The notes beneath the pieces are model-generated. The model did not search any database and was not told where the DNA came from. It worked only from the letters and a program-made list of their open reading frames with translations. Position numbers and translations under genes: made by a program. DNA of 64,000 nt from Globisporangium splendens (lineage: Eukaryota > Oomycota > Peronosporomycetes > Pythiales > Pythiaceae): contig VFIW01000020.1 in the NCBI GenBank assembly GCA_006386115.1, positions 1-64,000 on the forward strand. The letters are read 5' to 3'. Shown here one piece after another: positions 17,592-37,291 of the stretch (positions are counted from its first letter, which is position 1; each line of letters opens with the position of its first letter).

Positions 17592-17594
17592 CTG

Positions 17595-19612: not shown

Positions 19613-19685
19613 CGCCCCCCGTGGGGCTCGAACCCACGACCACTGGCTTAAAAGGCCAGCGCTCTACCGACTGAGCTAGACGGGG
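19613..19685 (-). tRNA. tRNA-Lys(UUU)
   Basis: Full 73-nt cloverleaf with anticodon UUU. The first base is altered (C instead of G) because LINE copy 3 is inserted exactly at the 5' end, so the terminal acceptor pair is lost. It also lacks its native upstream flank. Confidence 0.85.
19670..19684. repeat. Left target site of LINE copy 3
   Basis: actgagctagacggg inside the tRNA at 19613-19685. The right duplicate lies at 28369-28383. Confidence 0.9.
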
Positions 19686-19686
19686 G

Positions 19687-19699
19687 CACTTCTCAATTT
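19687..19699 (+). promoter_or_regulatory. Initiator-like element at LINE 5' end
   Basis: CACTTCTCAATTT, two G bases after the target duplication; 12 of 13 matches to the oomycete initiator from its CATT core. Confidence 0.55.
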
Positions 19700-19769
19700 G
19701 CTCGCTACCCCTCAAGTTGAATCCAAGACCTCCCAGTCACCTCCCCGCCTCTCAGCCTCCGACTTCCCC

Positions 19770-22379
19770 ATGGAAAATCCAGCTCCTCCCTCCCTCCACC
19801 AGCTGCCAGCTGTCGACACTGGCTCGAAATCTGGGTCCACACCCACTGTCGTGCCTCGTCCAACTGTCAGCCCATCCCCCTCCCAAAATTTGGAAGGGTC
19901 CGAACCCACCCAATCCAGCAACCTGGTGACGCCACCTGGGGTCAACCGCCATGTCTCCCCTTCAGCGAGCAACTTGAATGCGACACCTGATGTCGCAGAT
20001 CAAGCCCCTGCTCCTCCAACCCACGCAACTGCTCCGCCTCCCGCTGATCCCGCTCCTGTCGCTGACCCCGCCGCCATGGTGGACGATCCGATGGAGTCTG
20101 GCGGGAATGCTCAAGTGATGACCCTCGATCTCTCTGGCGACGACCCGATGGATCCTGCTGTCGCTGTCGCTCCTGAGAACGTGGACACTCGACTGTCCAT
20201 GGCTGAGCTTCTGCGGCAACAAGAACATCTTCGCCGAGACCGTGCTGTGATCGAAGCAACTCGCAGACGCGTCGAGACTCCGAAGCCCCTCGCTGTCGAC
20301 ATCGAAGCGATTGAGCGCCAGTACGCTGCTGGATGCGACTGGTCGTACATCGCGTCGCGAATGGAGCAAGCGCGTCCCTACCAGCTCCCGACCGCCAAAT
20401 ACGACATGGTGATCGAGACTGGAAGAGCGCTCGCGAAGACTCCGCTCCAAAAGATCATGGCGTCATTGGCCGGCACGAGCCACGGAAACGCGACACTCGA
20501 TGAGCTGTACCAGCGCTTCGAGATCGGTCAGATCTCCAAGCTCCCCGGCGGCAACCTCCGAGTCAAGGTCAAGACGAAGGAAGCCTGTGTGCGCTTGGAA
20601 CGCACCAAGGTGAACATCCTCGGTGGTACGTTCACGTTCAAGGAGTTCGACATCCTTGGCGACAAGTATTTCATCGACATTGTCAACGTCGATCCCGACG
20701 TGGACATTCGAGTGATCGTGCACCGACTGTTCCTCCTCGGGTGCCAGCCGGTGTGCCACACCTTTCGCGAAGTGAACCTCGCGACGGGGATGACATCGGC
20801 GACCTGGCGAGTGTACTTCTTGTCCAGCTCGTGCCCAAGCGCGTTGGTCGTGAACGGGTCTGTGTGCGACCAGGTGTTGTTCGACAACAAGCTGCACCCG
20901 GCGCATGGGAAGAATGCTCCGTTCCAGTCGGAGCGACAGCCGTATGGGTATCGCTCGCACCATGGAATCGACCTCGGGACTCCAGACAGTGTGTTCCCTC
21001 CTTCGAAGCCAGCTCCAGAGCAACCCCAGCAGCAACGACAGCAACCGCCGAAAACCTACGCTCAAGCTGCGAGTGCGATGCCGAAGCAAACCTCGCTGCA
21101 GAAGGCAGTCGAGGAAGGAAAGAGACGGGAAGCCCAGCTCCAGCAGAGAGCTCAGCATGGCAAGTCGTCAGCTGAAACAGCGCTGACCAAGCCGCGAAGC
21201 AACTCCGATGTGCTGTCGATCTCCACGTTCGACGACTCGCAAGGCAAGGTGACTCCACCAGGAAGTCCCAAACCGCCAATGAAGTCCCCGACGCTGCTCT
21301 TGACGAATGGAAACGACGGTTCCTCCACCGTGACAAACAAGAAGAAGCGCTCGAGAAACGGAGTCGACTTCTCCAACATGCTGGTGAAACAGCAACCGCA
21401 GCCTCTGGATGGTGTTGCCACCACCAACTACTTCCAGGTGCTGCAGTCGATGGAAGTGTCCTTCGAAGTGAAGAATGTGGCTGCGGACAAGAAGTATGGT
21501 CCTCGGTACCAAGTGATCCCTGTCGATGTGAAGCGTCCCGAGGCGCTCAAGACGTCGACTGAGTCGGCTTTCTTCGTGGAAAAGCACCACACGAAGATCA
21601 GGAAAGCGTCGAAGGCGTCTCCGATCTTGGAGGTGTCCGAGTCGATGCTCAACGACGAGAACACGGCGCTGCTCAACACCCTCCCGGATCGCCTTGCGCT
21701 CGCAGACACTCAGGTCGAGGGTGCGAGCAAACTCATCGACAACGCCACGAACCCCGACCACGTCATCAAGAAGGCAGTGGACTCGCCGCTGGCTTTCAAC
21801 AGCGCTCTGTCGCTCAAGATGGCAGGAAGCGGACACGGAGTCGCAGAGCTCGCGCAGCTGCATGTGATCAACCGCGTGTTGAGTGCGACCCAGCCGAGTG
21901 AAGACACGACGTTCAGTGCGAAGTGGAAGAAGCTGATGAAGACGACGGTCCCGTCGAAGCGAGGCGACATGTTCAAGACGTGTGCTAAGTGGTGGATGTT
22001 ATCGGACGATATCAAGGAGCTGTCTCGATCGACGAAGGCGCTCGGGTTCTTCGAACTCATGCTGATGTCGATCGCGCCGACGATCTTCAGCAACGACCAC
22101 TGGATCCACTACATCACTGGTCAGCCGGTCGAGTGGATCCCCGCGCACCACACGAGACTCCTCCACCCCAACACTCTCCTCATGCTCTTGCGGTCGGACC
22201 TTGGTGCGCACTGCTTGAGTCAATGGAATGAAGTGCAGTGGCAGGGGTACTTGCTCGACGACCTGGAAGAGCTTCGCAAGCTCGATGGGTACTACCCGGT
22301 CGACGAGTCGGTGTTGCAGCTCCGAGTTGTCGAGGGAGAGGTGGTACTGGTAGCGGGAGGCTTGGCCACTCGCTGCTAA
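19770..22379 (+). CDS. LINE ORF1 (copy 3)
   Basis: An intact 869-aa ORF1 protein. Numbered from the ATG at 19770: low-complexity acidic/Pro-rich N-terminus (1-165); a conserved segment at about 175-215 (EATRRRVETPKPLAVDIE); a beta-rich possible RNA-binding fold at about 255-330; a linker with PPKTYAQAAS near 427; a basic patch near 524 (KKKRSRNG); and a helix-rich C-terminal half ending GGLATRC. No zinc knuckle is visible. The last 26 nt overlap the ORF2 frame (+1). In non-LTR elements the protein at this place usually forms the RNA-protein particle; that role is inferred here. Confidence 0.78.
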   Translation: MENPAPPSLHQLPAVDTGSKSGSTPTVVPRPTVSPSPSQNLEGSEPTQSSNLVTPPGVNRHVSPSASNLNATPDVADQAPAPPTHATAPPPADPAPVADPAAMVDDPMESGGNAQVMTLDLSGDDPMDPAVAVAPENVDTRLSMAELLRQQEHLRRDRAVIEATRRRVETPKPLAVDIEAIERQYAAGCDWSYIASRMEQARPYQLPTAKYDMVIETGRALAKTPLQKIMASLAGTSHGNATLDELYQRFEIGQISKLPGGNLRVKVKTKEACVRLERTKVNILGGTFTFKEFDILGDKYFIDIVNVDPDVDIRVIVHRLFLLGCQPVCHTFREVNLATGMTSATWRVYFLSSSCPSALVVNGSVCDQVLFDNKLHPAHGKNAPFQSERQPYGYRSHHGIDLGTPDSVFPPSKPAPEQPQQQRQQPPKTYAQAASAMPKQTSLQKAVEEGKRREAQLQQRAQHGKSSAETALTKPRSNSDVLSISTFDDSQGKVTPPGSPKPPMKSPTLLLTNGNDGSSTVTNKKKRSRNGVDFSNMLVKQQPQPLDGVATTNYFQVLQSMEVSFEVKNVAADKKYGPRYQVIPVDVKRPEALKTSTESAFFVEKHHTKIRKASKASPILEVSESMLNDENTALLNTLPDRLALADTQVEGASKLIDNATNPDHVIKKAVDSPLAFNSALSLKMAGSGHGVAELAQLHVINRVLSATQPSEDTTFSAKWKKLMKTTVPSKRGDMFKTCAKWWMLSDDIKELSRSTKALGFFELMLMSIAPTIFSNDHWIHYITGQPVEWIPAHHTRLLHPNTLLMLLRSDLGAHCLSQWNEVQWQGYLLDDLEELRKLDGYYPVDESVLQLRVVEGEVVLVAGGLATRC

Positions 22380-25300
22380 ACCAACCTCGACTCAGCCCTC
22401 GTGGAGCAACATTAGTGCCTTGACCGTGAACACTAATGGCATCAAAGACAACGGTCACTTATTTATCGACAACATGGTATCGAAGCACTCGATATCGTGT
22501 GTCCAGGAAACCAAGTTCAGCGACAAGCAACACCTCTCGACCTTCAAGTTCCACCTCGACTCAAGCTTCAAGCACCAAGTCTTCGTGAATGACCCGAACT
22601 CCCAGTTGGATCGACCCACACGCGGACGTAGTGTCGGTGTTCTCACTGTTCTTCGCTCTGACGTGCCGGGTTTCGAAACGGCTGCGGAACAACCAAGCCT
22701 CGCCGTCCCAGGTCGGTACCTCGTAGTGAAGCTGATGGTGAGCGACGCTCCCGTCTACATTCACAACGTGTACGCTCCAGTGGACCGACAGGAAAAGCAA
22801 CAATTCTTCTCGAGTCTCTCGACCGAAGGCTTTGAAGATCAAGCGACACACCTTGTGTTGGGAGATCTGAACACTCCATTGGATCCCAGACTCGACTCGT
22901 CGTCTCCAGATCTGCGTTACGACCCGGCATGGTCGAGCTGCCTTGCGTGGCTTGCTCGTCTTGGCGTTGTGGATGCGTGGCGTGTACACCATGACACAAA
23001 GCGAGTCTTCACTGGTCCCTTGCCTCGCAAGAACCGGTTGGACTATATCCTTCTCTCGGAGGCGTTCTATGAACGTTTCTACGACGACTCCAAGTACTTC
23101 GTTCCCCAGAACGCTGGCGACCACCTTGCTCACTGTGTGAGTTTCAAGACTGGCTCCCAGCTGCATGGACGAGGGTACTGGAAGTTTCCCCGTTACCTGC
23201 TGGAGTACCCAGTGGTTGTCTCCGCGATCGAGAAGGAAGCGGAAACAGTCCGAGATCAGCTCCGTGGCTCTACCAATCCTGGTCAAATCTGGGAGAGGTG
23301 GAAGGCGAGAATCAAGACCCAGCTGCAAGACGTTCAGAAGAAGCTCCGCATGCAAGACACAGCCGCGGTTGAAGAGGCTCGTGCTTCGCTTGACCAGGCT
23401 GCTGCACGCCACCGCGAGTCTTCCACTGAGAACAACCGCAGCCAGTTCGACGACGCAATGAAGATGTACAAGGAGACGGTCACGAGGACAAGTCAATACA
23501 ACCAGGACAGTGCGTTCGACTTCCAAGCGGCCAACTCTGAAAAGTCCACCAAGCACTTCTTCCGTCCGCTGGACACGAGCTTGAGAAGGGTCTCGATCGA
23601 GGAGGTGGTGACACCGAGTGGCAGTGTCTCATCGAATCCTCAAGAGATATCGCTTCGCTTCCTGGAACACTGGGGGTCCGAGACGGGAGATCCCGACAGT
23701 CCAGCAGGAAGAGCTCCTCCACCCGACGAAACCATGCAACGCAACCTTCTCGACTCCATCGTCCGGTTCACGTCGGAAACGGATCGAGACATCCTGAATG
23801 CGCCAGTCGCATCTCACGATCTGGCGGATGCGATTCGACACATGAAGGCGACGTCGGCTCCTGGCATGGACGGCTTGACTGCTGGTTTCTACCAGGTCGC
23901 TCCGGACGTGTTTGGCGAGTGCTTGAGCATCGTGTTCAATGATCGGCTTCGACGAGGCGTGCTGCTTCCATCTCAACGCAAGTCGGCAGTGGTGCTGCTG
24001 CACAAGAAGGGTTCGCGAGCGCAGCCTGGCAACTACCGACCGATCGCACTCGTGCAGGTCGATGTGAAGGTGTTGTCGAAGGCGCTGACATACCGACTGC
24101 AGCAGGTGATTCTCGACTTGATCCACCCCGACCAAAAGGGATTCGTCAAAGGTCGATCGATCCACCACCATGTGCGGTTCCTCGCGGATCTGCAGGACTT
24201 GGTGACGAGTCGAGACGAAGAAGCGTATGCTCTGTTCTTGGACTTCGAGAAGGCGTTCGACCGAGTGAACTGGGACTACATGTTCCGGGTGCTCGAGCGA
24301 ATGGGGTGTGGTTCGGAGTTTGTGCAGTGGGTGAGACTGCTGTACACCGAGCCTCAAGCGCATCTTCTCATCAACCAGAACATCCAGCCCGCGCTGCATC
24401 CGACGAGAGGAGTGAAGCAAGGCGACCCGTTGTCCGCGCTGCTCTTCATCTTGACCATCGAGCCACTGGGCAACCTGCTGCGGTCCCACGAAGAGTTCGG
24501 AGTGTGTCTCAACGCAGACCACACCGCCACGAGCACGTTCTTCGCGGACGACTCGACTCTTCTCGGCAGCTCGATTGCAAACCTGCAGGCGCAGCTCGGG
24601 ATCGTGGAAGAGTACTGCAGAGGCTCCGGTGCGAAGCTCAACCTGTCCAAGTCGATGCTGCTGGCGCTCAACCGGAACCAAGACTGCCCCACGCTGCCTG
24701 GCGTCCAAGTGCTCGGTCGCACGGAGACAGTGAAGTATCTTGGCATCCCGTTTGGACAGTCGCCCGTTAACGACAACATCGTCGAGTTCCTCGAGCAGCG
24801 CTTCTACGAAGGCTTCAAGGCTTGGTACCGACGTGCAAGGACACTTCGTGGTCGGCTCTTGGTAGCTCAAACGATGGTGCTCTCGCGTCTGTGGCACTAC
24901 ACGCAGCACGTAACGATTCCAGCGACAGTGGTGAAGCGGTGGCAGTCGATGCTGAATCGATTCGTGCTGAGTCGAAAGTATGATCGAGACGCATCGCACA
25001 TCCAGCTCATTCCACGCGAGTTCTTGTACCATCGCAAGAGAGACGGCGGTCTGGGGATCCCAAGTCTAGACGCACAGCTCAAGAGACAGCGTCTTGCACT
25101 GCTGCTACAGTTCATGCGTGCGGCAAACAACGCAAGTGCTCGGAACTGGACAACAGCGAGCGTCGAGTTGCTGACGTCAGTGCTCCCTCGTTACGGAGAA
25201 CGACAAGCCTTGGACTTCCTTGCGATCTCCCCGCTTCGACATGGCGACGTGATCAAGTGGAGTCTGACCTCGGCGTGGTGGCGAGCGACTTGGGTCTGGT

Positions 25301-26502
25301 GGTACAAGATTCGCTGGGAAGTCACGTGGCGGGACCTTCCTTTGGATAAGCACGCTGCGTACGGTCTTCGACAGCCGATCTGGTTCCACTCGGACGCTAA
25401 ACTTCACTACGAGCAGACTGCAAGGACGCACACCAGCTCAGCACATCGACGATGTATTGGGATGGTTCCCGAACCGCAACGCAGCTTTCGACTACACGTG
25501 TCGAGAGTCTTCGGCGTGCGTTCACTGGCTGACTTCATGCGCGAAGGTTGTGCTTGGCCGACGCAGCAAGACTTCGTGGAGCGACACATCGACTTCACGC
25601 TCGTGTCTACGACTCCTGGACAACAGGTGAAGTGGCTGCGAGTGCTGTACAACGAAGCCACGCAGATCGTCGAGCGTCTGAATGCACGAGATTTTGTGCT
25701 ACAGACCCCGCACATTGAAAGACGAGCACTACCACACCTGGGATGCAAGAGCGACGTCAAAGTGTGCTTGATTCCTGCGATTCCACGGTCAGCTATGCTT
25801 CGCGTGGTGTGGACACCTACACTGCCGACGAAACCACACCCGATGACTATACACTCGCGGAGTGTGGGTGAAGAGCAGATCAAGTCGTTTGTGAAATACA
25901 GCAAGCATCTGCGCAAGATCTTGCTTCCAGTCTTTGAAGACCTGCAGTTTCGTCTCGCGTTCCGTCTTCTGCCTGTGCGCGCTCGGTTCTGGTTCCTCGA
26001 AGCTGTACACCCACGCATCCAGTATTGCGTGCGTGACGGATGCGACGCAATCGAGACGGAGGAACACTTGTTCTTCGAGTGCACTCTTGCAGCACAGCTG
26101 TGGAGTCACTTGAACCAACTGGTGTCGCCGCTCTTCCGTACGCGACCGACTTGGCATGACATCGCCTTGGCGACGAAGATGCACGTGCGTGATGAGTGGG
26201 GAGACTGTGAAGAAGTAGTGCATGACGCTTGGCACACACTCCGCGCTGTAACGCTTCATTTCATTTGGACAGATCGAAATCGATGCCTGTTCGACGGAAG
26301 ACAGCCCACACCGTCGCTCCCTGCGCTCCAAGTGGTCTTCACGACGTTTGCGGCGCACATCCGGTTCTTCGAAAGACGGTTGTACGAGAGCGAAGACAAG
26401 CTAGCCTTGGCCACGGTTGTGCGCGCGATGAAGTCTCAGCCGGCTTTCGGCAGGTTTACCGACCTCCACCCTGGTATCACCAGTGTCCGCCAAACTGTCT
26501 AA
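22354..26502 (+). CDS. LINE ORF2 (copy 3): APE endonuclease-reverse transcriptase
   Basis: Intact, 1382 codons from the frame opening at 22354; the TTG used in alignment to copy 1 is at 22420. The domain order matches copy 1: endonuclease (NTNGI, QETK, GDLNTPL, GDHLAH), reverse transcriptase (MDGLTAGFY, YRPIAL, FADDST), and C-terminal zinc segment. The region 23230-24360 is a mosaic. For example, KLRMQDTAAVEEA and TENNRSQFDDAMKMYK resemble copy 2, while the downstream half is almost identical to copy 1. There is no ATG before the catalytic NTNG. The stretch between the ORF1 stop and NTNG contains no stop codon in this frame, which favours continuous translation from ORF1 by a +1 shift. Confidence 0.92.
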   Translation, partial: REAWPLAAKPTSTQPSWSNISALTVNTNGIKDNGHLFIDNMVSKHSISCVQETKFSDKQHLSTFKFHLDSSFKHQVFVNDPNSQLDRPTRGRSVGVLTVLRSDVPGFETAAEQPSLAVPGRYLVVKLMVSDAPVYIHNVYAPVDRQEKQQFFSSLSTEGFEDQATHLVLGDLNTPLDPRLDSSSPDLRYDPAWSSCLAWLARLGVVDAWRVHHDTKRVFTGPLPRKNRLDYILLSEAFYERFYDDSKYFVPQNAGDHLAHCVSFKTGSQLHGRGYWKFPRYLLEYPVVVSAIEKEAETVRDQLRGSTNPGQIWERWKARIKTQLQDVQKKLRMQDTAAVEEARASLDQAAARHRESSTENNRSQFDDAMKMYKETVTRTSQYNQDSAFDFQAANSEKSTKHFFRPLDTSLRRVSIEEVVTPSGSVSSNPQEISLRFLEHWGSETGDPDSPAGRAPPPDETMQRNLLDSIVRFTSETDRDILNAPVASHDLADAIRHMKATSAPGMDGLTAGFYQVAPDVFGECLSIVFNDRLRRGVLLPSQRKSAVVLLHKKGSRAQPGNYRPIALVQVDVKVLSKALTYRLQQVILDLIHPDQKGFVKGRSIHHHVRFLADLQDLVTSRDEEAYALFLDFEKAFDRVNWDYMFRVLERMGCGSEFVQWVRLLYTEPQAHLLINQNIQPALHPTRGVKQGDPLSALLFILTIEPLGNLLRSHEEFGVCLNADHTATSTFFADDSTLLGSSIANLQAQLGIVEEYCRGSGAKLNLSKSMLLALNRNQDCPTLPGVQVLGRTETVKYLGIPFGQSPVNDNIVEFLEQRFYEGFKAWYRRARTLRGRLLVAQTMVLSRLWHYTQHVTIPATVVKRWQSMLNRFVLSRKYDRDASHIQLIPREFLYHRKRDGGLGIPSLDAQLKRQRLALLLQFMRAANNASARNWTTASVELLTSVLPRYGERQALDFLAISPLRHGDVIKWSLTSAWWRATWVWWYKIRWEVTWRDLPLDKHAAYGLRQPIWFHSDAKLHYEQTARTHTSSAHRRCIGMVPEPQRSFRLHVSRVFGVRSLADFMREGCAWPTQQDFVERHIDFTLVSTTPGQQVKWLRVLYNEATQIVERLNARDFVLQTPHIERRALPHLGCKSDVKVCLIPAIPRSAMLRVVWTPTLPTKPHPMTIHSRSVGEEQIKSFVKYSKHLRKILLPVFEDLQFRLAFRLLPVRARFWFLEAVHPRIQYCVRDGCDAIETEEHLFFECTLAAQLWSHLNQLVSPLFRTRPTWHDIALATKMHVRDEWGDCEEVVHDAWHTLRAVTLHFIWTDRNRCLFDGRQPTPSLPALQVVFTTFAAHIRFFERRLYESEDKLALATVVRAMKSQPAFGRFTDLHPGITSVRQTV

Positions 26503-27958: not shown

Positions 27959-28183
27959 TGAGTGACGCCACCTCTGTATACCTGGAGCCGTTGTGTCAGC
28001 GCCTCATGGGGTACAATGTACCCGGAGACTGGACAGAAGGAACTCCGCCATTTGGACTTAGTATACTCGCGGTGGATCTTTCTCACCCTTTCCAAGTTTG
28101 TTCGGCTAGGGTTATCTAACCCATATCGGCCATTCTACATTATGGAGGAGCGGTTAAGAACAGGCTGGCTCGAAATCAAATGT

Positions 28184-28255
28184 TGACCACGGCGGGATTT
28201 GAACCCGTGTCTCCTGAGTGGAGAGATGGACCTCAGACGACTGAGCCAAAGCGAC
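28184..28255 (-). pseudogene. tRNA-like segment in LINE 3' UTR (copy 3)
   Basis: Identical to the segment at 10348-10419: boxes A and B and a variable-arm-like hairpin, but no anticodon arm and an unpaired acceptor. Confidence 0.6.
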
Positions 28256-28368: not shown

Positions 28369-28383
28369 ACTGAGCTAGACGGG
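28369..28383. repeat. Target-site duplication between LINE copies 3 and 4
   Basis: A perfect actgagctagacggg joins the two elements. Copy 4 starts on the next base. Confidence 0.92.
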
Positions 28384-28396
28384 CACTTCTCAATTT
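28384..28396 (+). promoter_or_regulatory. Initiator-like element at LINE 5' end
   Basis: CACTTCTCAATTT directly after the target duplication with no extra base, as in copy 2. Confidence 0.55.
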
Positions 28397-28466
28397 GCCG
28401 GCTACCCCTCAAGTTGAATCCAAGACCTCCCAGTCACCTCCCCGCCTCTCAGCCTCCGACTTCCCC

Positions 28467-31124
28467 ATGGAAAATCCAGCTCCTCCCTCCCTCCACCAGC
28501 TGCCAGCTGTCGACACTGGCTCGAAATCTGGGTCCGCACCCACTGTCGTGCCTCGTCCCACTGTCAGCCCATCCCCCTCCAAAAATTTGGAAGGGTCCGT
28601 ACCCACCCAATCCAGCAACCTGGTGACGCCACCTGGGGTCAACCGCCATGTCTCTCCCACAACGAGCAACTTGAATGCAACACCTGGTGTCGCAGATCAA
28701 GCCCCTGCTCCTCCAACCCACGCAACTGCTCCGCCTCCCGCTGATCCCGCTCCTGTCGCTGACCCCGCCGCCATGGTGGACGATCCGATGGAGTCTGGTG
28801 GGAATGCTCAAGTGACGACCCTCGATCTCTCTGGCGACGACCCGATGGATCCTGCTGTCGCTGTCGCTCCTGCGAACGTGGACACTCGACTGTCCATGGC
28901 TGAGCTTCTGCGTCAACAAGAACATCTTCGTCGAGACCGAGCTGTGATCGAAGCAACTCGCAGACGCGTCGAGACTCCGAAGCCCCTCGCTGTCGACATC
29001 GAAGCGATTGAGCGCCAGTACGCTGCCGGCGGTGACTGGTCTGCCATCGCCTCCAGCATCCACCAGTCTCGCCCGTACCAGCTTCCCCATGCCAAGTACG
29101 ACATGGTGATCGAGACGGGCAAGACGTTCGCCAAGACACCGCTGACGAAGATCATGGCCGCGCTCGTGGGAACGAACTACGGCAACCGCGCGCTCGACCG
29201 TCTGTACGAACAGAAGCTCGTCGGCCAAGTGTCGAAGCTGCCGGGTGGCAATCTGCGCCTCAAGCTCAAGTCTCGTGAAGCGTGCCTGAAGCTCGAGCGC
29301 ACGACTGTGAGCATCCTCGGTGGTGTCTTCCCGTTCAAGCCGTTCGACGTTCTGGCGAGCAAGTTCTACTTGGATGTCTCGAACGTCGACTCGGACACGA
29401 ACACGGACCTCATGCTGCGTCGGCTGTACCTGCTCGGGTGCGAACCGGTGTACGACACGTTCCGCGATGTGAACCTGGCGACGGGTCTCACGTCCGCGAC
29501 GTGGCGTGTGTACTTCCGGTCGAGCGAGTGTCCGCCTCCGCTGGTGGTGAACGGCTCGGTCTGCGACCAGATCGTCTTCAAAAACAAGCTGTACCCCGCG
29601 CACGGCAAGGACGCGCCGTTCCAGTCGGAGCGTCTCCCCTTCGGCTTTCGCTCGCATCACGGCATCGATTTGAAGTCGTCCGAATCGTCGAATGCTGCGT
29701 TCGCTCGCTCTGCTTCAGCGTCGGTTGCAACTCCCGCTGCCAAGTCGAACTCGTCGAAGAACCAAGAGAAAGCACCTCCCGCTCCGCCGAAGACGTACGC
29801 GCAAGCTGCTCAAGCCGGACCGGTCTTCTCCTCGCTCCGCAACGCGCTCGAGGACGAAGAGAAGAAAGAGGATGGCCAGCTCCAGTCTGGAGCTCAGCAT
29901 GGCCAGCGATCTGCGGCCAGTCAACTCGCGAAGAGAATCATCGACATCGACGACGCGCTCTCGATCTCGACGTTCACTGGATCCGGTGGTCGTATCTCGC
30001 CGCCTGCGAGTCCGAAGGCTCCGCCCAAGCCGGTGCTGCTGCTGACAAATGGTTCGGACGGCTTCACCACCGTCGAGAACAAGAAGAAGCGCTCGCGCGG
30101 AGGTGTCGACTTCAGCAACATGCTGACGAAGCAGATGCCAAAGCCGCTCGATGGCGTCGCGACCGCGAACTACTTCCAGGTGCTCCAGACGATGGAAGTC
30201 AGGTTCGAGTCGATCGACGCGACCGTGGACAAGAAGTACGGCGTCCGTCACCACGTGCGTCCGGTCGACGTGAAGCGTCCCGGCGCGCTCAAGGCGTCGA
30301 CCGAGTCTGCGTTCTTCGTCGAGAAGCATCACACGAAGATCCGCAAGGCATCAAAGCCGTCGCCTGTCGTCGAGGTGACCGAGTCGATGATCAGCGACGA
30401 GAACACGGCGCTTCTGAACACGCTTGCCGACCGTCTCGAGGATGCGGACAAGAAGGTCGACGGCATCGCCACGATCCTCGGGAACGCGACGAACCCCGAC
30501 CACATCCTGAAGAAGGCGGTCGAGTCCCCACTCGCGTTCAACAGCGCGCTGTCGCTCAAGATGGCTGCTAGTGGCAACGAGATCGAGGAACTCGTGCAGC
30601 TGCACATGATCAACCGTGTGCTGAGCGCGACGAAGCCGGATGAAGACACGACGTTTGCTGCGAAGTGGAAGAAACTCATGGGAGCGTCGGTTCCGTCCAA
30701 GTGCCAAGACATCTTCGTCACATGCGGCAAGTGGTGGAAGGTGACCCCGAAGATCTTCGAGCTCACGCGCTTCACCAAGGCGCTGAGCGCGTTCGAGCTC
30801 TCGCTCATGTCGATCGCGCCGACGCTGTTCGCGAACGATCACTGGATCCAGTTCGTGACGGGACATCCGGTCGAATGGATTCCCGCTCACCACGCGCGTC
30901 TGCTGCACCCGAACACGCTGCTGAGTCTCCTGCGGTCGGAGCTTGGCGAGTTGTGCATGACGCACTGGCGTGAGATCCAGTGGCAAGGCCACATGTTCGA
31001 TGAACTCGAAGAGCTGCGCACACTCGAGGGACACTACCCAGCGGACGAGTCGGTTCTTCAGCTCCAGGTCGCGGACGACGGCTCGGTAACGCCAGTGGCG
31101 GGAGGCGTAGCCACTCGCTGCTAA
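28467..31124 (+). CDS. LINE ORF1 (copy 4), chimeric
   Basis: Intact, 885 aa. Residues 1 to about 187 are nearly identical to the ORF1 of copies 1-3. From the codons after AIERQYAA the protein diverges (for example GDWSAIASSIHQ versus GDWSHIASRMEQ), while keeping the same order of motifs: the beta-rich segment, PPKTYAQAAQ, KKKRSRGG, and a C-terminal helical region ending GGVATRC. The abrupt change in similarity indicates recombination or template switching between subfamilies. The ORF2 frame overlaps the end in +1 from 31111. Confidence 0.78.
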   Translation: MENPAPPSLHQLPAVDTGSKSGSAPTVVPRPTVSPSPSKNLEGSVPTQSSNLVTPPGVNRHVSPTTSNLNATPGVADQAPAPPTHATAPPPADPAPVADPAAMVDDPMESGGNAQVTTLDLSGDDPMDPAVAVAPANVDTRLSMAELLRQQEHLRRDRAVIEATRRRVETPKPLAVDIEAIERQYAAGGDWSAIASSIHQSRPYQLPHAKYDMVIETGKTFAKTPLTKIMAALVGTNYGNRALDRLYEQKLVGQVSKLPGGNLRLKLKSREACLKLERTTVSILGGVFPFKPFDVLASKFYLDVSNVDSDTNTDLMLRRLYLLGCEPVYDTFRDVNLATGLTSATWRVYFRSSECPPPLVVNGSVCDQIVFKNKLYPAHGKDAPFQSERLPFGFRSHHGIDLKSSESSNAAFARSASASVATPAAKSNSSKNQEKAPPAPPKTYAQAAQAGPVFSSLRNALEDEEKKEDGQLQSGAQHGQRSAASQLAKRIIDIDDALSISTFTGSGGRISPPASPKAPPKPVLLLTNGSDGFTTVENKKKRSRGGVDFSNMLTKQMPKPLDGVATANYFQVLQTMEVRFESIDATVDKKYGVRHHVRPVDVKRPGALKASTESAFFVEKHHTKIRKASKPSPVVEVTESMISDENTALLNTLADRLEDADKKVDGIATILGNATNPDHILKKAVESPLAFNSALSLKMAASGNEIEELVQLHMINRVLSATKPDEDTTFAAKWKKLMGASVPSKCQDIFVTCGKWWKVTPKIFELTRFTKALSAFELSLMSIAPTLFANDHWIQFVTGHPVEWIPAHHARLLHPNTLLSLLRSELGELCMTHWREIQWQGHMFDELEELRTLEGHYPADESVLQLQVADDGSVTPVAGGVATRC

Positions 31125-34100
31125 GACGGTCCCGACGTCGCAACCGACTTGGAACAACGCCAGCGTGTTGACCGTGAACACGAACGGCGTCAAGAAGAAC
31201 GGACACCTCCTGATCGAAAACCTGCTGTCGAAGTACGCGGTGTCGTGCGTCCAAGAAACCAAGTTCGCGGACCGCTCGCACCTCGCAAGCTTCAAGTTCC
31301 ACCTCGAGTCCGCATTCGAGCACAAGCTGTTCGTGAGCGACTCGAACTCGCTGCTGGATCGGCCGACGCGCGGTCGGAGCAATGGAGTGCTGACAGTGCT
31401 CCGCTCCGACTTCCCCGGCTTCGACACGGTGGTGGAGATGACCCGAATGACCGTCCCTGGCCGGTACCTCGTCGTGCGTGTGACGGTTGAGCTCGCTCCC
31501 GTCTACATCCACAACGTGTACGCGCCGGTGGACAAGCAAGAGAAACAAGCGTTCTTCTCAAGCCTGCCGACGGAGGAGTTCGAAGATGGCGCGACGCACT
31601 TGGTGCTTGGCGACCTCAACACTCCGCTGGACCCGAGCTTGGACTGTTCGACACCAGATCTGCGCTACGAACCGAGTCGTTCGTGCTGCCTTGAGTGGCT
31701 GGCACGTCTTGGAGTCGTCGACGCCTGGCGGATCCATCACGACTCGGCACGCGTGTTCACCGGTCCGATGCCTCGCAAGAACCGTCTTGACTACATTCTG
31801 GTCTCGGACGCGTTCTGCAACAGCTTCTACGGCGACGCCAAGTACTTCCTGCCGAGGCACGCTGGAGACCACCTGGCGCACAGTGTGTCGTTCAAGCCGG
31901 GCTCGCAACTGCACGGTCGAGGATACTGGAAGTTCCCGCGCTATCTGCTCGACTACCCGTTGGTGGTGTCGGCGATCCAGCGCGAAGCTGAAGATGTCTT
32001 GGCACAGCTCCGCTCCGCGTCAAACCCCGGTAAGACGTGGGAGCAGTGGAAGTCGAGCATCAAGGCGCAGCTGCAGGACCTCCAGAAGAAGCTCCGCGCA
32101 CAAGACACGCAAGCTGTCGAAGACGCTCGTGTCGCGCTGGATCAAGCTGCTGCTCGGTACCGAGTCTCTGCTGACGACGCCAACCGAGAACTGTACGAGG
32201 AAGCCATGCGCGACTACAAGGAGACGGTGACGCGGTCGAGCCAGTATCACCAAGACACTGCGTTCGACTTCCAAGCCGCGAACTCCGAGAAGTCGACGAA
32301 ACACTTCTTCCGACCGCTGGACACGAGCTTGAGGCGGGTCTCGATCGAGGAAGTCGCGACACCGAGTGGAAGTGTCTCGACGAGCCCTCACGAGATCTGT
32401 CTTCGCTTCCTGGAGCACTGGGGGTCCGAGATGGGTGACCCAAACAGTCCGACAGGAAGAGCTCCTCCACCCGATAACGCTGTGCAGCGCAAGCTTCTCG
32501 ACTCGGTCGTCCGCGTCCTGTCAGAGCTCGACAGGGAGGCTCTCGACATGGACGTGACCGCTCTCGACTTGACCGAAGCCATCAAACACATGAAGGCGAC
32601 GTCGTCTCCCGGCATGGACGGCTTGACAGCGGGATTCTACCAAGTCGCGCCGGACGTGTTCGGACAGTGCCTTGAACTGGTCTTCAACGATCGTCTCGAA
32701 CGTGGCAAACTTCTCGCGTCGCAGCGCAAGTCGGCTGTCGTGCTGTTGCACAAGAAGGGTTCGCGTGCAGACCCAGGCAACTACCGACCGATCGCGCTCG
32801 TCCAAGTCGACGTGAAGGTGTTATCAAAGGCGCTGACGTATCGGCTGCAGTCTGCCATACCGAAGCTCATCCACCCGGACCAGAAAGGTTTCGTCCGCGG
32901 TCGCTCGATCCATCACCACGTGCGCTTCCTCGCTGATCTCCAAGACCTCGTCACCAGTCGCGACGAAGAGGCGTACGCGCTGTTCTTGGATTTCCAGAAG
33001 GCATTCGACCGGGTCAACTGGGACTACATGTTCCGGCTGCTCGAGCGCATGGGGATCGGGGACGGCTTCACGCGCTGGGTCAAGCTGCTGTACACGGATC
33101 CGCAGGCGCATATGCTGATCAACGGTGACATCCAGCCAGCGCTGCATCCAACGCGAGGCGTGAAGCAAGGCGATCCGCTGTCCGCGCTGCTCTTCATTCT
33201 AACGATCGAGCCGCTCGGCAACATGCTTCGATCGCACGAGGAGTACGGCGTGTGTCTGAATGACGACCACACTGCGACGAGCATCTTCTTCGCGGACGAC
33301 TCGGCGCTTCTCGGCAGCTCCATCGTGAACCTTCAGGCGCAGCTTGGGCTCGTGGAGGAGTACTGCCAAGGCTCCGGCGCGAAGTTGAACCTGTCCAAGT
33401 CGGTGCTGCTGGCGCTGAACCGGAGTCACGACTGTCCGTCGATGCCTGGTGTCCAAGTGCTCGGTCGCTCGGAGTCGGTCAAATACCTCGGTATCCCATT
33501 CAGCCAGTCGACTGTCGACGATCGCATCCTTGAGTCGCTTGACCAGCGTTTCTACGACGGCTTCAAGTCGTGGTATCGCCGCGCTCGGACACTCCGCGGA
33601 CGCCTCTTGGTCGCGCAGACCATGGTGCTCTCGCGCTTGTGGCACTACACGCAGCACGTCTCGGTTCCGTCGGCGGTCGTCCGGCGATGGCAGTCGATGT
33701 TGAACCGGTTCGTGCTGAGTCGCAAGCACGATCGCGACGCGACGCACGTCCAGTTGATCCCGAGTGAGTTCCTGTATCTGCGGCGCGCAGACGGCGGTCT
33801 TGGTGTCCCGTGTCTCGACGCGCAGCTCAAGCGACAGCGACTCGTTCTCTCGATGCAGTTTGTGGCGCAGGCTCGCGCGTCGAGCGGACGCTGGTGGACG
33901 ACTGCGAGCACGGAGTTGCTGCGGTCGATACTTCCTCGATACAGTGGCAGTCACGCACTCGACTTGCTGACGATATCACCGCAGCGACACGGCGAGATGA
34001 TCAAGTGGCGACACGTGTCGACATGGTGGAAGACGACTTGGACGTGGTGGCATCGGACGCGATGGGAGAAGACGTGGCGCGACCTGCCGTCCGATGATCG

Positions 34101-35253
34101 CGTCGAGTACGCGCTTCACCAGCCGATCTGGTTCCACTCCGACGCCGATCTTCACTACGAGCAGCGCATGCGCGGCGGCACGACCGCTGCACATCGACGC
34201 TGCATCGGCATGGTGCCTGAGCCGCAACGAAGCTACCGTCTTCACGTCTCTCGTGTCTTCGGTCTTCGGTCGCTCGCGGACTTCATGCGCGATGGAAGCG
34301 CGTGGCCGACGCAAGTCGACTTCGTGAATCGGCACATCGACTTCACACTTGTGGACATCACGCCAGGGAAGCAAGCCAAGTGGCTGCGCACGCTATACCG
34401 CGAAGCGACGCAGATCGTGGAGCGGCTTGGTGCACATGATGTTGTTCTGCAGGCGACCGACGGAGGTAGCCCGAGGTTGGTACCGTACGTCGGCGTCACG
34501 AGCAACGAGAAGCTGTGCTTGTTCCCGGAGATCCCGCGCTCGGCCGCCATGTGCATCGTGTGGACGCCGAAGTCGCCGACGAAGCCACACCCGATGAAGA
34601 TCCACTGGGATCGCGTCGACGAGGACACCATCAAGGCGCATGTGAAGCTTGGCAAGCGTCTGCGCAAGGTGCTGCTCCCGATCTTCGACGACCTTCAGTT
34701 CCGCCTGGCGTTCCGTCTTCTGCCGGTCCGGTCGCGCTTCTGGTTCCTGGAAGCCTCGAACCCGGGGATACACAAGTGTGTGCGTGACGGCTGCGACGCG
34801 ATCGAGTCCGAGCAGCACTTGTTCTTCGACTGCACGCTCGCATCCGGACTGTGGCGACAGGTGCTCAGCATCACGACGAAGCTCTTCGCGACACGGCCGA
34901 CGTGGCTTGACATCGCGCTAGCGAGGCAGCTGCGTGTGCGCGACGAGTGGATGGACCACGAGACGATCATAGCCGACGTGTGGCATGTCCTTCGCGCGGT
35001 GACGCTTCACTTCGTGTGGTCGGATCGCAATCGGTGCCTGTTTGATGGAAGACAGCCGACACCGACGCTCGCTGCGCTTCAAGTGGTGCTGACGACGTCC
35101 GCTGCGCACATCCGGTACTTCCAGCGGCGCCTGTATTCAGCAGATCAGCAGAATCTGCTACGTGAAGCACTCCGGTGTCTGGGCACGCAGTCGGGTTTTG
35201 GCGGTTTTGTTGAACACCATCCCGGTATTACCAGTGTCCGTACAACTGCCTAA
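31111..35253 (+). CDS. LINE ORF2 (copy 4): APE endonuclease-reverse transcriptase
   Basis: Intact, 1380 codons from the opening of the frame just after an upstream TAG (31108-31110). Endonuclease motifs NTNGV, QETK, GDLNTPL and GDHLAH are followed by reverse transcriptase with YRPIAL and FADDSA, and a C-terminal CVRDGCDAIESEQHLFFDC zinc-like segment. No ATG occurs before the catalytic NTNG and QETK residues. The codons between the ORF1 stop and NTNG read PTWNNASVL, recognisably like PSWSNISAL in copy 1. This stretch therefore appears to be conserved protein, which supports translation through from ORF1. Confidence 0.92.
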   Translation, partial: PLAAKTVPTSQPTWNNASVLTVNTNGVKKNGHLLIENLLSKYAVSCVQETKFADRSHLASFKFHLESAFEHKLFVSDSNSLLDRPTRGRSNGVLTVLRSDFPGFDTVVEMTRMTVPGRYLVVRVTVELAPVYIHNVYAPVDKQEKQAFFSSLPTEEFEDGATHLVLGDLNTPLDPSLDCSTPDLRYEPSRSCCLEWLARLGVVDAWRIHHDSARVFTGPMPRKNRLDYILVSDAFCNSFYGDAKYFLPRHAGDHLAHSVSFKPGSQLHGRGYWKFPRYLLDYPLVVSAIQREAEDVLAQLRSASNPGKTWEQWKSSIKAQLQDLQKKLRAQDTQAVEDARVALDQAAARYRVSADDANRELYEEAMRDYKETVTRSSQYHQDTAFDFQAANSEKSTKHFFRPLDTSLRRVSIEEVATPSGSVSTSPHEICLRFLEHWGSEMGDPNSPTGRAPPPDNAVQRKLLDSVVRVLSELDREALDMDVTALDLTEAIKHMKATSSPGMDGLTAGFYQVAPDVFGQCLELVFNDRLERGKLLASQRKSAVVLLHKKGSRADPGNYRPIALVQVDVKVLSKALTYRLQSAIPKLIHPDQKGFVRGRSIHHHVRFLADLQDLVTSRDEEAYALFLDFQKAFDRVNWDYMFRLLERMGIGDGFTRWVKLLYTDPQAHMLINGDIQPALHPTRGVKQGDPLSALLFILTIEPLGNMLRSHEEYGVCLNDDHTATSIFFADDSALLGSSIVNLQAQLGLVEEYCQGSGAKLNLSKSVLLALNRSHDCPSMPGVQVLGRSESVKYLGIPFSQSTVDDRILESLDQRFYDGFKSWYRRARTLRGRLLVAQTMVLSRLWHYTQHVSVPSAVVRRWQSMLNRFVLSRKHDRDATHVQLIPSEFLYLRRADGGLGVPCLDAQLKRQRLVLSMQFVAQARASSGRWWTTASTELLRSILPRYSGSHALDLLTISPQRHGEMIKWRHVSTWWKTTWTWWHRTRWEKTWRDLPSDDRVEYALHQPIWFHSDADLHYEQRMRGGTTAAHRRCIGMVPEPQRSYRLHVSRVFGLRSLADFMRDGSAWPTQVDFVNRHIDFTLVDITPGKQAKWLRTLYREATQIVERLGAHDVVLQATDGGSPRLVPYVGVTSNEKLCLFPEIPRSAAMCIVWTPKSPTKPHPMKIHWDRVDEDTIKAHVKLGKRLRKVLLPIFDDLQFRLAFRLLPVRSRFWFLEASNPGIHKCVRDGCDAIESEQHLFFDCTLASGLWRQVLSITTKLFATRPTWLDIALARQLRVRDEWMDHETIIADVWHVLRAVTLHFVWSDRNRCLFDGRQPTPTLAALQVVLTTSAAHIRYFQRRLYSADQQNLLREALRCLGTQSGFGGFVEHHPGITSVRTTA

Positions 35254-35335
35254 TCGAATACCGGTGGAGGGGTACCAGTCAACACTGGCGATATGCAGTT
35301 TGGCAGTTGGTGGTCCCTGCTCTCCATGCCGAGGA

Positions 35336-35351
35336 GCTCATTTTCAAATTT
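35336..35351 (+). promoter_or_regulatory. Internal initiator upstream of ORF3 (copy 4)
   Basis: GCTCATTTTCAAATTT is kept exactly although the surrounding spacer has diverged from copies 1 and 3. It lies 45 bp before the ORF3 ATG. Confidence 0.7.
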
Positions 35352-35395
35352 TCCAGGTCCAGCTCAAGCAACTCAAGCACCCCAAGCAACTCAAG

Positions 35396-36763
35396 ATGGC
35401 CCCGCAGCAGGTCCCCGTACCCAAGCGATCTGACTCTCCCGTCGCCAACTCGAAGTCGGGCTCCCCTCTGCGGACTGTAATGTCTCTGGCTGCACCTGAA
35501 AAGGGGACGGGGGGCATGAGCCCTGAGGGGGGCTCGGCTGACGGCTCAGGCGACGAAGAGGATGATGTCGATGCTGCGGGCGAGGGAGACGACCTCGCAG
35601 CGACCGATCTCTCCGATCTCCTGCCGGAGGAGGTGAATGCCAACGTCGAGCTTGATGACGGCGACCGCGTGAGCACTAACGACCTTCCGAACACCAGCGT
35701 GGGCGACAGCGAGAGCGACGACTCCAGCGCCAGCGAGGACGACGCCAACGGTGATGTCGACCGTACCGAGCATGAAGAGGGCGAGCGCGAGGAGGAGAGT
35801 GAAAGCGGGGAGAGCGACGACGAGGACTCTGACCCGGAGATTGCGACCCCGCCTCCACTGACCACGGCGCAGCCAGCATCGGCGACGGCGACGAGGACCC
35901 TGACAACTGTGACTGGGTACCATCTTCGAAAGCGGACTGCTGAACAGCTCGAGGCTCTGCGTCCAGTCAAGCGCGCTCGGAACAAGCGCGCTCGGGAGTC
36001 TCGCGTGTGGGAAGGCGAAGGCGAGATCGACACCATAGACAAGCGGCGAACGACTGCCACGGGACTCGAGTATCGTGTAACGTGGATCGACGGCTCCGAC
36101 CCGGTGTGGCTGCCGAGAGACCAGCTCATCGAAGATGGCAACCTCAACCTGATCGAGACGCTCGACGCGTACTACCTCCGGTACCCGAACCGAGAAGTCA
36201 GCTACCAAGCGTACGTCAGCAGGAACGCGCGAGCTTACGCGGCAATCGCGGACAACGTGGACAACTCGTGCCTGCCCCACGCCATCCAAATGGCACTCGA
36301 ACTGCTGGGGTATCAGCAGGAGAGCGATCGGCTTCCGGACATCTGGGTGAAGTACCTGCAAGACGCGATCGAGGCAAAGGTCCCGCTCAACGAAGGGTTC
36401 CACAAGATCAGCGAGATCGTTCGCTACTGTGCAAAGGGCGTGCCAGAGTGCGGAGTTGAGATCAGCATCAAGACCCTCCGAGTCAACCTCTTCGACGGTG
36501 AGGGCGCCGGCCCCATGGCTATCGCCAAGCGCGTTCTTCCCGACGAGGACGGTGGTCGCGTGCTCAAGCCCGGTGTATACATCGTCGGCGCGTACAAGCG
36601 CAACATGAGGGCGCACTGCTTCGCGATGCAAGTGACCGAGGACGAGGACATCATCGTGCGCGAAGAAGGCATGGACTCTGGCATCGGCGACCAGACGTGG
36701 CTGCGCATGATCAAGTTCATCCGCAAGGTGGAAGTGAGGCAAAAGATTATCTCTGATGAGTGA
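35396..36763 (+). CDS. LINE ORF3 (copy 4): chromodomain plus papain-like peptidase-like protein
   Basis: 455 aa; the ATG at 35396 (MAPQQV) is the only upstream in-frame ATG and matches MAPEQV in copies 1 and 3. Acidic N-terminal half (many Asp, Glu and Ser), then LRKRTAEQLEALRPVKRAR as a possible nuclear signal, then a chromodomain-like segment (EYRVTWIDGSDPVWLP). The C-terminal domain has Cys292 in DNSCLPHAIQMALELLG and His407 in MRAHCFAMQV, the spacing and context expected of a papain-fold cysteine peptidase (C39/OTU-like look). The possible substrate is unknown. This is the only copy here with both candidate catalytic residues. Confidence 0.78.
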   Translation: MAPQQVPVPKRSDSPVANSKSGSPLRTVMSLAAPEKGTGGMSPEGGSADGSGDEEDDVDAAGEGDDLAATDLSDLLPEEVNANVELDDGDRVSTNDLPNTSVGDSESDDSSASEDDANGDVDRTEHEEGEREEESESGESDDEDSDPEIATPPPLTTAQPASATATRTLTTVTGYHLRKRTAEQLEALRPVKRARNKRARESRVWEGEGEIDTIDKRRTTATGLEYRVTWIDGSDPVWLPRDQLIEDGNLNLIETLDAYYLRYPNREVSYQAYVSRNARAYAAIADNVDNSCLPHAIQMALELLGYQQESDRLPDIWVKYLQDAIEAKVPLNEGFHKISEIVRYCAKGVPECGVEISIKTLRVNLFDGEGAGPMAIAKRVLPDEDGGRVLKPGVYIVGAYKRNMRAHCFAMQVTEDEDIIVREEGMDSGIGDQTWLRMIKFIRKVEVRQKIISDE

Positions 36764-36967
36764 TCCTACCTCTGTACACCTGGAGCCGTTGTGTCAGCGT
36801 CTCTTGGGGTACATTGTACCCGCGGGACAGGACAGAAGGGACTCCGCCATTCGGACTAAGCATACTCGCGGTGGATCTTTCTCACCCTGTCCAAGTCTGT
36901 TCGGCTAGGGTTACATAACCCATATCGGCCATTCTACATTATGGAGGAGCGATCGAGAACCGGGTGC

Positions 36968-37040
36968 TGCGCGCTGTGGGGATCGAACCCACGACCTGCT
37001 GCTTACAAAGCAGCTGCTCTACCATTTGAGCAAACGAAGA
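36968..37040 (-). pseudogene. tRNA-Thr(UGU)-like segment in LINE 3' UTR
   Basis: A 73-nt cloverleaf on the minus strand with good D, anticodon (UUUGUAA loop, UGU) and T arms. The 5' acceptor strand UCUUCGU does not pair with the 3' strand AGCGCGC. It is inside LINE copy 4, at the same place where copies 1 and 3 have a Leu/Ser-type tRNA remnant. Confidence 0.7.
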
Positions 37041-37276
37041 TTGTCGACAAGAAGGCGAAGCGACTCCAACCTGACACAATCGGCACGGACACAACTTCAA
37101 GCAACATCGCACACCTGATTCAAGCAACATTCAAGCAACCGTAGAGCAACATTCAAGAAAAACGACCTTAAAAGTCGAAGATGAGATAGTATGTACGATA
37201 GTATTTATATCAGTGAGGTTAGTCATTACCAGGTAGATTGAGAAGCCACTCAGTCTATTGTAATAGACAACTTTCA

Positions 37277-37291
37277 ACTGAGCTAGACGGG
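37277..37291. repeat. Right target-site duplication of LINE copy 4
   Basis: A perfect actgagctagacggg; the array spacer follows directly. Confidence 0.92.

What the first reader, a model, noticed from the sequence alone, without database searches (positions are those of the whole stretch)
19670..37291. LINEs insert at one exact position in the tRNA-Lys 5' end with a constant 15-bp duplication
Every LINE or short-element junction in the window is at the same point of the tRNA-Lys gene. The duplicated sequence is actgagctagacggg (tRNA positions 2-16 on the minus strand), seen at 157, 10533, 17577, 18250, 19670, 28369 and 37277, with a degenerate version at 1836. All elements are in the same orientation, opposite to the tRNA. 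At 19613-19685 the tRNA is kept nearly whole to the left and the duplicate plus spacer resume to the right of copy 4. This is strong site specificity for an APE-type LINE. RNA-gene targeting is known from Dictyostelium TRE elements and Tx1-clade elements. Cutting inside the tRNA 5' end with this duplication looks different from the Dictyostelium upstream-offset pattern.
Basis: partly seen in the sequence, partly recalled or inferred. Interest (0 to 1): 0.88.

Follow-up and report, generated by a model that had tools for sequence, protein, structure and literature searches.

The report
LINEs landing precisely in tRNA genes
In a water-mould genome, a group of jumping genes and their short hitch-hikers insert at one exact point inside many kinds of tRNA gene, in a way that leaves the tRNA gene whole and appears to recreate a landing site for the next insertion.

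Summary
The window (Globisporangium splendens, an oomycete) holds a tandem tRNA-Lys(TTT) array carrying APE-type LINEs, short elements and a SINE, all in one orientation at one point of the gene. The target is not tRNA-Lys alone. Of 40 genomic LINE 5' ends found by similarity, 39 abut a tRNA gene, stub or 5' half at one position (31 exactly, 8 with 1-6 extra bases): Ala, Asn, Ile, Lys, Met, Phe, Thr, Tyr. The fortieth lies 17 bp upstream of tRNA-Leu.

Two corrections follow. (1) The base before the element is tRNA position 1 (T1 in Asn, C1 in Tyr), so the element starts ACTTCTCAATTTGC and the tRNA gene stays whole. (2) At tRNA-Ala(AGC), native CATTTGAGC reads CAACTGAGC in all 12 3' junctions found. 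So AAC is the element's own 3' end, and the duplication is 14 bp (positions 1-14).

Model: the sense strand is nicked after A14 of box A and primes reverse transcription. The element's CAAC plus TGAGC rebuilds box A, which would explain the tandems. I judge this a new variant of site-specific non-LTR retrotransposon.

The parts
1..158 (+). 3' part of a short element SE1, cut by the contig start, ending CTTTCAAC (151-158)
   Evidence: 97% identical to 18094-18249 region of SE1; 3' end position
159..172 (+). tRNA-Lys stub (positions 14-1), right-hand duplication of that SE1
   Evidence: exact TGAGCTAGACGGGC
1514..1587 (-). degenerate tRNA-Lys copy left of the SINE (not called by ARAGORN)
   Evidence: read; ends ACTGAGCTAGACTGGC
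1589..1837 (+). SINE of about 250 bp, 3' end CACTTCAAC; 5' boundary approximate
   Evidence: aligns over its length with a copy at C162 and 4 further places; L197 shows it at tRNA-Phe
1838..1852 (+). degenerate right-hand duplication of the SINE (GAGCTAGACGGG plus extra bases)
1853..10534 (+). LINE copy e1, ACTTCTCAATTTG ... CTTTCAAC
   Evidence: 98% identical to e3; ends
10535..10548 (+). 14-bp duplication between e1 and e2
   Evidence: exact TGAGCTAGACGGGC
10549..17578 (+). LINE copy e2; ORF2 split (1061 + 290 aa); 5' 3.5 kb close to e1, rest diverged
17579..17592 (+). 14-bp duplication between e2 and SE1, followed by extra TGC
   Evidence: sequence
17596..18251 (+). non-autonomous short element SE1, LINE-like 5' 32 bp and 3' CTTTCAAC
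18252..18265 (+). 14-bp duplication right of SE1
19612..19686 (-). tRNA-Lys(TTT) kept at the left of e3 (position 1 altered by the extra bases at the junction)
   Evidence: ARAGORN, Rfam RF00005 59.4 bits
19688..28370 (+). LINE copy e3
28371..28384 (+). 14-bp duplication between e3 and e4
28385..37278 (+). LINE copy e4
31165..35253 (+). ORF2 of e4: APE endonuclease and reverse transcriptase (listed from a GTG; true start not known)
   Evidence: PF03372 33.6 bits, PF00078 119.9 bits; closest solved relative LINE-1 ORF2p
35162..36763 (+). ORF3 of e4 (listed frame), with a chromodomain-like segment
37279..37292 (+). 14-bp duplication right of e4, then native 5' flank of the tRNA-Lys unit
37931..42259 (-). 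seven uninserted tRNA-Lys units (37931, 38643, 39352, 40063, 40774, 41476, 42185), the in-array empty sites
   Evidence: sequence for three of them

Best explanation
These are APE-type LINEs, with a SINE and short elements that share their 3' end and site, that target the box A/D-arm of tRNA genes. Shown by sequence: the product is [whole tRNA gene]-[element, ACTTCTC...CTTTCAAC]-[tRNA 1-14 stub]-[native tRNA 5' flank], the element pointing away from the tRNA, for at least eight isotypes. Inferred: the endonuclease nicks the tRNA-sense strand after A14 (TAGCTCA^GT); the freed ...GCTCA-3'OH primes reverse transcription of an RNA ending ...CUUUCAAC; the other strand is cut 14 bp away, just before tRNA position 1; the cDNA reaches the RNA's first A. 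Inferred: CAAC plus the stub's TGAGC reads CAACTGAGC, complement of box A GCTCAGTTG, so every insertion makes a new landing site, which explains head-to-tail tandems. Inferred: the first A is the start site of an oomycete INR+FPR core promoter whose preceding C is supplied by tRNA G1.
For: 5' ends: pattern CTGAGC-N(5-16)-CACTTCTCAATTTG 57 hits, control 0, 48 with exactly 8 bases between. Similarity-based set of 40: 32 ARAGORN tRNA genes, 5 stubs after an element 3' end, 2 tRNA-Tyr (1 with only its 5' half recognisable), 1 after the SINE; 39 at one position, 31 of them exact. Position 1: all 6 copies at Asn or Tyr lack the C and carry the gene's own base. 3' ends: CTTTCAACTGAGC 100 hits, controls 1 and 1; 40 of the 100 read, all 40 followed by the bases of a targeted tRNA type. 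tRNA-Ala(AGC): 12 of 12 3' junctions AAC, 0 native TT. Off-target copy near tRNA-Leu: same element ends, 13-15 bp duplication. Tandems: 13 of 57. INR YCAYTYY, 2-nt gap, FPR MWTTTNC from PMC3599244 passages. Several isotypes for one ORF2 lineage: copies 96-99% identical to e4 next to Met and Phe stubs.
Against: No experiment. Off-target 3' ends exist: 5 of 40 LINE tails, plus 1 at an unidentified TGAGCTAAACCC site; for SE1 1 of 31 off target and 1 degenerate. Two of the off-target flanks do not begin TGA (CGATG, TGTGG). 8 of 40 5' junctions carry 1-6 extra bases. In some arrays the two flanks of one element belong to different tRNAs (C29: Phe left, Met right), which a simple insertion does not give. 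The first Y of INR comes from tRNA position 2 and is a G in many copies. Copies in arrays are not independent events.
Confidence: 0.83

Rival explanations
1. Targeting works through the Pol III machinery (TFIIIB/TFIIIC on active tRNA genes), as proposed for TRE5, and the endonuclease only needs a TCA nearby; the fixed point follows from which part of the gene is exposed.
For: Two off-target copies lie beside tRNA genes: 17 bp upstream of tRNA-Leu (C164) and in the 3' flank of a tRNA-Ala in its array (C114). Four of the six off-target flanks start TGA with otherwise unrelated bases. TRE5 ORF1-TFIIIB interaction is reported in PMC5911963 (passages).
Against: Nearly base-exact position across isotypes (31 of 40 exact), and the hit isotypes share GCTCA, while Gly-, Glu- or Asp-type D-arms were not seen in the 40 (isotype D-arms recalled, not surveyed here). 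Tandem insertion may use stubs without box B, but whether a stub or the whole gene was hit cannot be read from the sequence.
Confidence: 0.3
2. Base pairing decides the site: the RNA itself ends ...CAACUGAGC, complementary to box A, and anneals to the nicked or open tRNA gene.
For: CAACTGAGC is the exact complement of GCTCAGTTG. Annealing of 3' UTR repeats to the target is proposed for SART1 (PMC7265360, passages).
Against: At C164 the element reads CAAC and then native TGATCC, at C114 TGACC, so bases beyond CAAC(UGA) are not copied from the RNA. At most a 3-nt UGA pairing is left open.
Confidence: 0.15
3. Most copies were spread by unequal crossing-over and gene conversion between arrays, with few real insertions, so the constant flank is inherited.
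For: Regular spacing about 7.47 kb at tRNA-Thr(TGT) on C34; e1 and e3 98% identical; elements with flanks from two different tRNAs.
Against: At least eight isotypes with unrelated flanks, each with its own bases 1-9 duplicated on both sides, need separate insertions; LINE families of 70-75% ORF2 identity, short elements and a SINE share the site.
Confidence: 0.15
4. One reading: a tRNA-Lys-specific LINE with a 15-bp duplication at tRNA 2-16.
For: True of the window taken alone.
Against: ACTGAGCTAGACGGG occurs only on C70 and C111 (34 places with up to 1 mismatch), while the same element ends occur at many other tRNAs.
Confidence: 0.02

Closest known systems
Dictyostelid TRE5, TRE3 and D. purpureum NLTR-A (PMC5006619 section 9 read; PMC5911963 passages)
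   Same: Non-LTR elements at tRNA genes of many kinds; NLTR-A sits 2-6 bp upstream of the mature tRNA, the nearest published position that I saw; APE nicking is described for TRE5-A.
   Different: TRE5 about 50 bp upstream and TRE3 about 100 bp downstream, over a window of positions; no in-gene nick, box A rebuilding or restored gene by duplication in the passages read.
NeSL-1_TV (tRNA-Pro), LIN15_SM (tRNA-Arg), LIN25_SM (tRNA-Glu) (PMC4640811 passages)
   Same: Sequence-specific LINEs inside tRNA genes.
   Different: Discussed among the restriction-like-endonuclease NeSL-related LINEs; one tRNA each; here APE-type and many isotypes.
Oomycete Utopia in U2 snRNA genes (PMC4640811 section 6 read)
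   Same: Oomycete LINE; an intact RNA gene lies upstream and a fragment downstream of the element; arrays with several families.
   Different: Restriction-like endonuclease, U2 target; the fragment downstream is U2 from base 39 on, and no duplication was established.
Tx1-clade APE elements: Keno (U2), Mutsu (5S), Dewa (tRNA-Leu spacer) (PMC3706591 passages; Keno's APE in PMC4640811 section 6)
   Same: Keno: APE endonuclease with strict RNA-gene target.
   Different: Different targets. The Tx1 clade of Mutsu and Dewa is recalled; whether the present LINE belongs to it could not be tested.
Dada DNA transposons of Perkinsus (PMC3706591 passages)
   Same: Insert in the box A of tRNA-Ile and tRNA-Tyr; putative duplication TAGCTC.
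   Different: DDE transposase, 6-7 bp duplications, each family with its own tRNA.
SART1/TRAS telomere LINEs (PMC7265360 passages)
   Same: APE-type (recalled) site-specific LINEs in repeats; target-like bases in the 3' UTR proposed to anneal to the target.
   Different: Telomeric repeat target.

Membership tests
APE-type non-LTR retrotransposon (LINE) | Reverse transcriptase domain | tested here: met
   PF00078 119.9-126.3 bits in e1, e2, e4; closest solved relative LINE-1 ORF2p, E 3.4e-59
APE-type non-LTR retrotransposon (LINE) | APE endonuclease N-terminal to the RT | tested here: met
   PF03372 above cut-off in e1 and e4; not reported in the split ORF2 of e2
APE-type non-LTR retrotransposon (LINE) | No LTRs; target site duplication | tested here: met
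   No long terminal repeats in e1-e4 in the self comparison; 14-bp duplications
Dictyostelium TRE elements | Insertion about 50 bp upstream or about 100 bp downstream of tRNA genes | tested here: not met
   39 of 40 5' ends at the tRNA 5' end itself
Tx1 clade | RT phylogeny with Tx1 references | not testable with these tools
   No Tx1 RT reference sequence was at hand; no tree made
Oomycete L1 with archaeal-type RNase H (PMC5348765 section 5) | RNase H domain at the C-terminal end of ORF2 | tested here: not met
   No RNase H family at E <= 0.1 in ORF2 of e1 or e4; a diverged domain is not excluded
Utopia / NeSL-type LINEs | Restriction-like endonuclease after the RT | tested here: inconclusive
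   An APE is present; no specific search for a restriction-like endonuclease was made beyond Pfam

The most novel reading that the evidence does not exclude
Both ends of the element are fitted to the tRNA gene. Its 3' end CAAC completes the duplicated TGAGC into a full box A complement, even where the original target had a weaker one (tRNA-Ala), so each insertion makes a new and sometimes better landing site. Its 5' end is the +1 A of an INR+FPR core promoter whose preceding C is the target's own G1, so each insertion also rebuilds the promoter. The host keeps a whole tRNA gene. The system is a self-renewing safe harbour shared by LINEs, short elements and a SINE across at least eight tRNA isotypes.
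Probability: 0.42. Interest if true: 0.8.

Novelty: new variant of a known kind. Interest (0 to 1): 0.7.

Why it matters
It gives an APE-type LINE with near base-exact specificity inside a Pol III promoter element shared by many tRNA genes; the site-specific LINEs in the papers that I saw are mostly tied to one gene or placed at an offset. It shows how an element can enter an essential gene family and leave the gene whole, and how an element's own end can rebuild its target. It makes testable whether tRNA targeting works through DNA sequence or through Pol III factors, and it is a candidate source of a tRNA-gene-specific endonuclease. Tandem piles (four elements in a row in this window) explain part of the structure of the tRNA arrays in this genome.

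Tried and rejected
Rejected: tRNA-Lys-only specificity. Rejected: CACTTCTCAATTTGC as a marker of the LINE. Its 935 hits with up to 2 mismatches (controls 44 and 41) include another repeat with copies of the motif about 7.17 kb apart, which I take for an LTR-like element but did not read through; a shared core promoter is the likely reason. A 3' terminal hairpin before ACAACYTTTCAAC: of 24 distinct tails 3 had positive z and 21 had z of -0.32 to -2.8 against mononucleotide shuffles; too weak to claim. Relatives in viral contigs: none by protein; one exact 18-base match (L194) lies in a stretch without a called tRNA or a tblastn match and I take it for chance. The tRNA behind the stub TGAGCTACTCGCG (C182) was not identified; ARAGORN found no tRNA at the two other places with that word. 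The SINE looks tRNA-headed by eye (GGTTCGAGCCCC), but ARAGORN and Rfam call no tRNA in the copies given. The structure of ORF3 was not obtained. No tree was made.
Full report
WHAT IS THERE. The window is G000:C111:1-64000 of a 53.3-Mb, 195-contig assembly. Protein records whose contig lengths equal those of this assembly (587329, 124742, 1065501, 429825) name Globisporangium splendens, an oomycete. The window holds a tandem array of tRNA-Lys(TTT) genes about 710 bp apart on the minus strand. In it are four LINE copies (e1-e4), a short element SE1 and the 3' part of a second SE1 at the contig start, a degenerate SINE, and an LTR element.

OBSERVATION. In the assembly it occurs, with up to 1 mismatch, at 34 places, all on C70 and C111.

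ELEMENTS. e1 and e3 are 98% identical over 8.7 kb; e2 is close to e1 in its first 3.5 kb and then diverges; e4 is about 75% identical to e1 over much of its length. ORF2 of e1 and e4 (1360 and 1362 aa as listed) has Exo_endo_phos and RVT_1. The best solved relative is LINE-1 ORF2p (E 3.4e-59), ahead of R2 (5.5e-28). In the assembly ORF2 of e4 gives 36 matches from 34 scored of 600 candidates; 32 are near full length, 24 of these without a stop and 8 with one. SE1 shares about 32 bp at its 5' end with the LINEs and the 3' end CCTTTCAAC.

GENOME-WIDE FLANKS, 5' END. With 117 bp of e4 as query, 40 of 50 candidates were scored, and all 40 flanks were read. In 32, ARAGORN calls a tRNA gene: Ala(AGC) 10, Asn 4, Met 3, Ile 3, Thr(AGT) 3, Thr(TGT) 3, Thr(CGT) 2, Lys 2, Ala(CGC) 1, Leu 1. 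Five follow an element 3' end plus a stub (Met, Thr, Phe, Lys, Lys). Two are tRNA-Tyr: one an intron-bearing gene, one with only its 5' half recognisable. One is e1 after the SINE. Thirty-nine have the junction at the same point of the tRNA: 31 exactly, 3 with 1, 4 with 2 and 1 with 6 extra bases; the Leu copy is 17 bp upstream of its gene (the script's -9 for four Met copies is a second GAGC in the stub and counts as exact). Independently, CTGAGC-N(5-16)-CACTTCTCAATTTG has 57 hits, 0 in the control, 48 with exactly 8 bases between; this pattern also finds Phe genes.

WHERE THE ELEMENT STARTS. At tRNAs with G1 the junction reads ...C|ACTTCTC. In the 4 Asn copies (T1) it reads ...A|ACTTCTC and in the 2 Tyr copies (C1) ...G|ACTTCTC; these six are the hits that match the query only from its second base. 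So that base is tRNA position 1, and the tRNA gene is complete. ACTTC-TC-AATTTGC with the preceding C fits the Phytophthora INR YCAYTYY, 2-nt gap and FPR MWTTTNC, where initiation is usually at the A (PMC3599244, passages), except that the first Y is set by tRNA position 2 and is often G.

GENOME-WIDE FLANKS, 3' END. CTTTCAACTGAGC has 100 hits, controls 1 and 1. I fetched 40 of the 100; all 40 continue with the bases of a targeted tRNA type and then another sequence; I did not pair each with its own left flank. Without that pattern: of 40 scored LINE tails (83 candidates) 31 end there, 3 more are at Tyr or Phe stubs with a point change in the element end, 1 (C143) is at an unidentified TGAGCTAAACCC, and 5 are off target. 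Of 31 SE1 tails, 28 end there, 1 more is at Phe, 1 is off target and 1 is degenerate.

THE DUPLICATION IS 14 BP. tRNA-Ala(AGC) natively reads CCATTTGAGC. A pattern that allows native or element bases on either side finds 67 sites: 45 native on both sides (one of these, C114:11561, has an element 6 bases further on), 10 5' junctions and 12 3' junctions. All 12 read CAACTGAGC and none CATTTGAGC. So AAC comes from the element, and the native part begins at tRNA position 14. The copy near tRNA-Leu agrees: left ...TGATCCAACCAAC|ACT, right CTTTCAAC|TGATCCAACCAACAC..., a 13-15 bp duplication. One SE1 copy at Phe (L192) reads CTTTCAACAACTGAGC, again with the element's own end. In tRNA-Lys the effect is hidden.

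MECHANISM. Shown: fixed ends, fixed orientation, 14-bp duplication, whole tRNA, at least eight isotypes, tandem junctions (13 of 57). Inferred: nick after A14 of the sense strand, priming by ...GCTCA-3'OH, second cut before position 1, and CAAC+TGAGC as a rebuilt target. Of six off-target flanks four start TGA (TGATC, TGACC, TGAGT twice), and two do not (CGATG, TGTGG), so the endonuclease may need little more than TCA^, the rest coming from box A or from Pol III factors. One ORF2 lineage serves several isotypes: copies 96-99% identical to e4 (Lys) lie next to Met stubs on C162 and C125 and Phe stubs on C29 and C34. Which of stub or whole gene takes the next insertion cannot be read from the sequence.

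COMPARISON. Paper searches cover an open-licence PMC library only. In the listings and the passages or sections that I read I saw no APE-type LINE with this site; subscription papers and Repbase entries were not searched. Closest are Dictyostelid TRE and NLTR-A, tRNA LINEs of the NeSL/LIN group, oomycete Utopia with the same layout of an intact gene upstream, and Dada transposons that use TAGCTC of box A. ORF2 relatives are named from Plasmopara, Peronospora matthiolae, Lagenidium giganteum and Aphanomyces astaci and ORF3 relatives from Phytophthora cactorum; their flanks could not be read here.

LIMITS. One assembly, no experiment; search counts are lower bounds; copies in arrays are not independent; clade not settled; no tRNA census was made.

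Noticed in passing
window 36968-37039 (-) in e4; 28181-28249 (-) in e3; L165, L170, L175, L176: LINE 3' UTRs of several families carry an antisense tRNA: tRNA-Gly(CCC) by ARAGORN in two copies and RF00005 at 46-59 bits in four of the 16 fetched tails and in e4; the one in e1/e3 is only tRNA-like (21.6 bits, below gathering). All three kinds have GCTCA in the D-arm. How they got there is unexplained.
   Followed up: partly
window 35162-36763 and 8647-10122: The long LINE families have a third ORF with a chromodomain-like segment (profile match to cpSRP43 chromodomain, E 4.5e-5) and, by eye only, a cysteine-protease-like part; Pfam does not name a chromodomain (best other match Stealth_CR1, 0.00044, in 9 of 13). 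Relatives in Phytophthora cactorum.
   Followed up: partly
window 810-880, 18904-18974; C70:68171: Three tRNA-Lys copies lack 4 bases (ACCGAGC for ACCGACTGAGC) exactly at the inferred nick site; they may be one deletion spread by array exchange, or a scar of nicking.
   Followed up: no
window about 42957-51796: Ty3-like LTR element (LTRs 98.9% identical, 542 bp; gag-pol domains) breaks a tRNA-Lys unit; the array resumes at a different point of the unit, so the insertion is not a simple one.
   Followed up: no
C29:123957-124699; C35:84314-85054; C162:1695087: Some elements have a left flank from one tRNA and a right stub from another (for example Phe and Met), which suggests exchange between arrays through the elements.
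   Followed up: no
window 10549-17578: e2 is a mosaic: its first 3.5 kb is 93% identical to e1, the rest about 79%.
   Followed up: no
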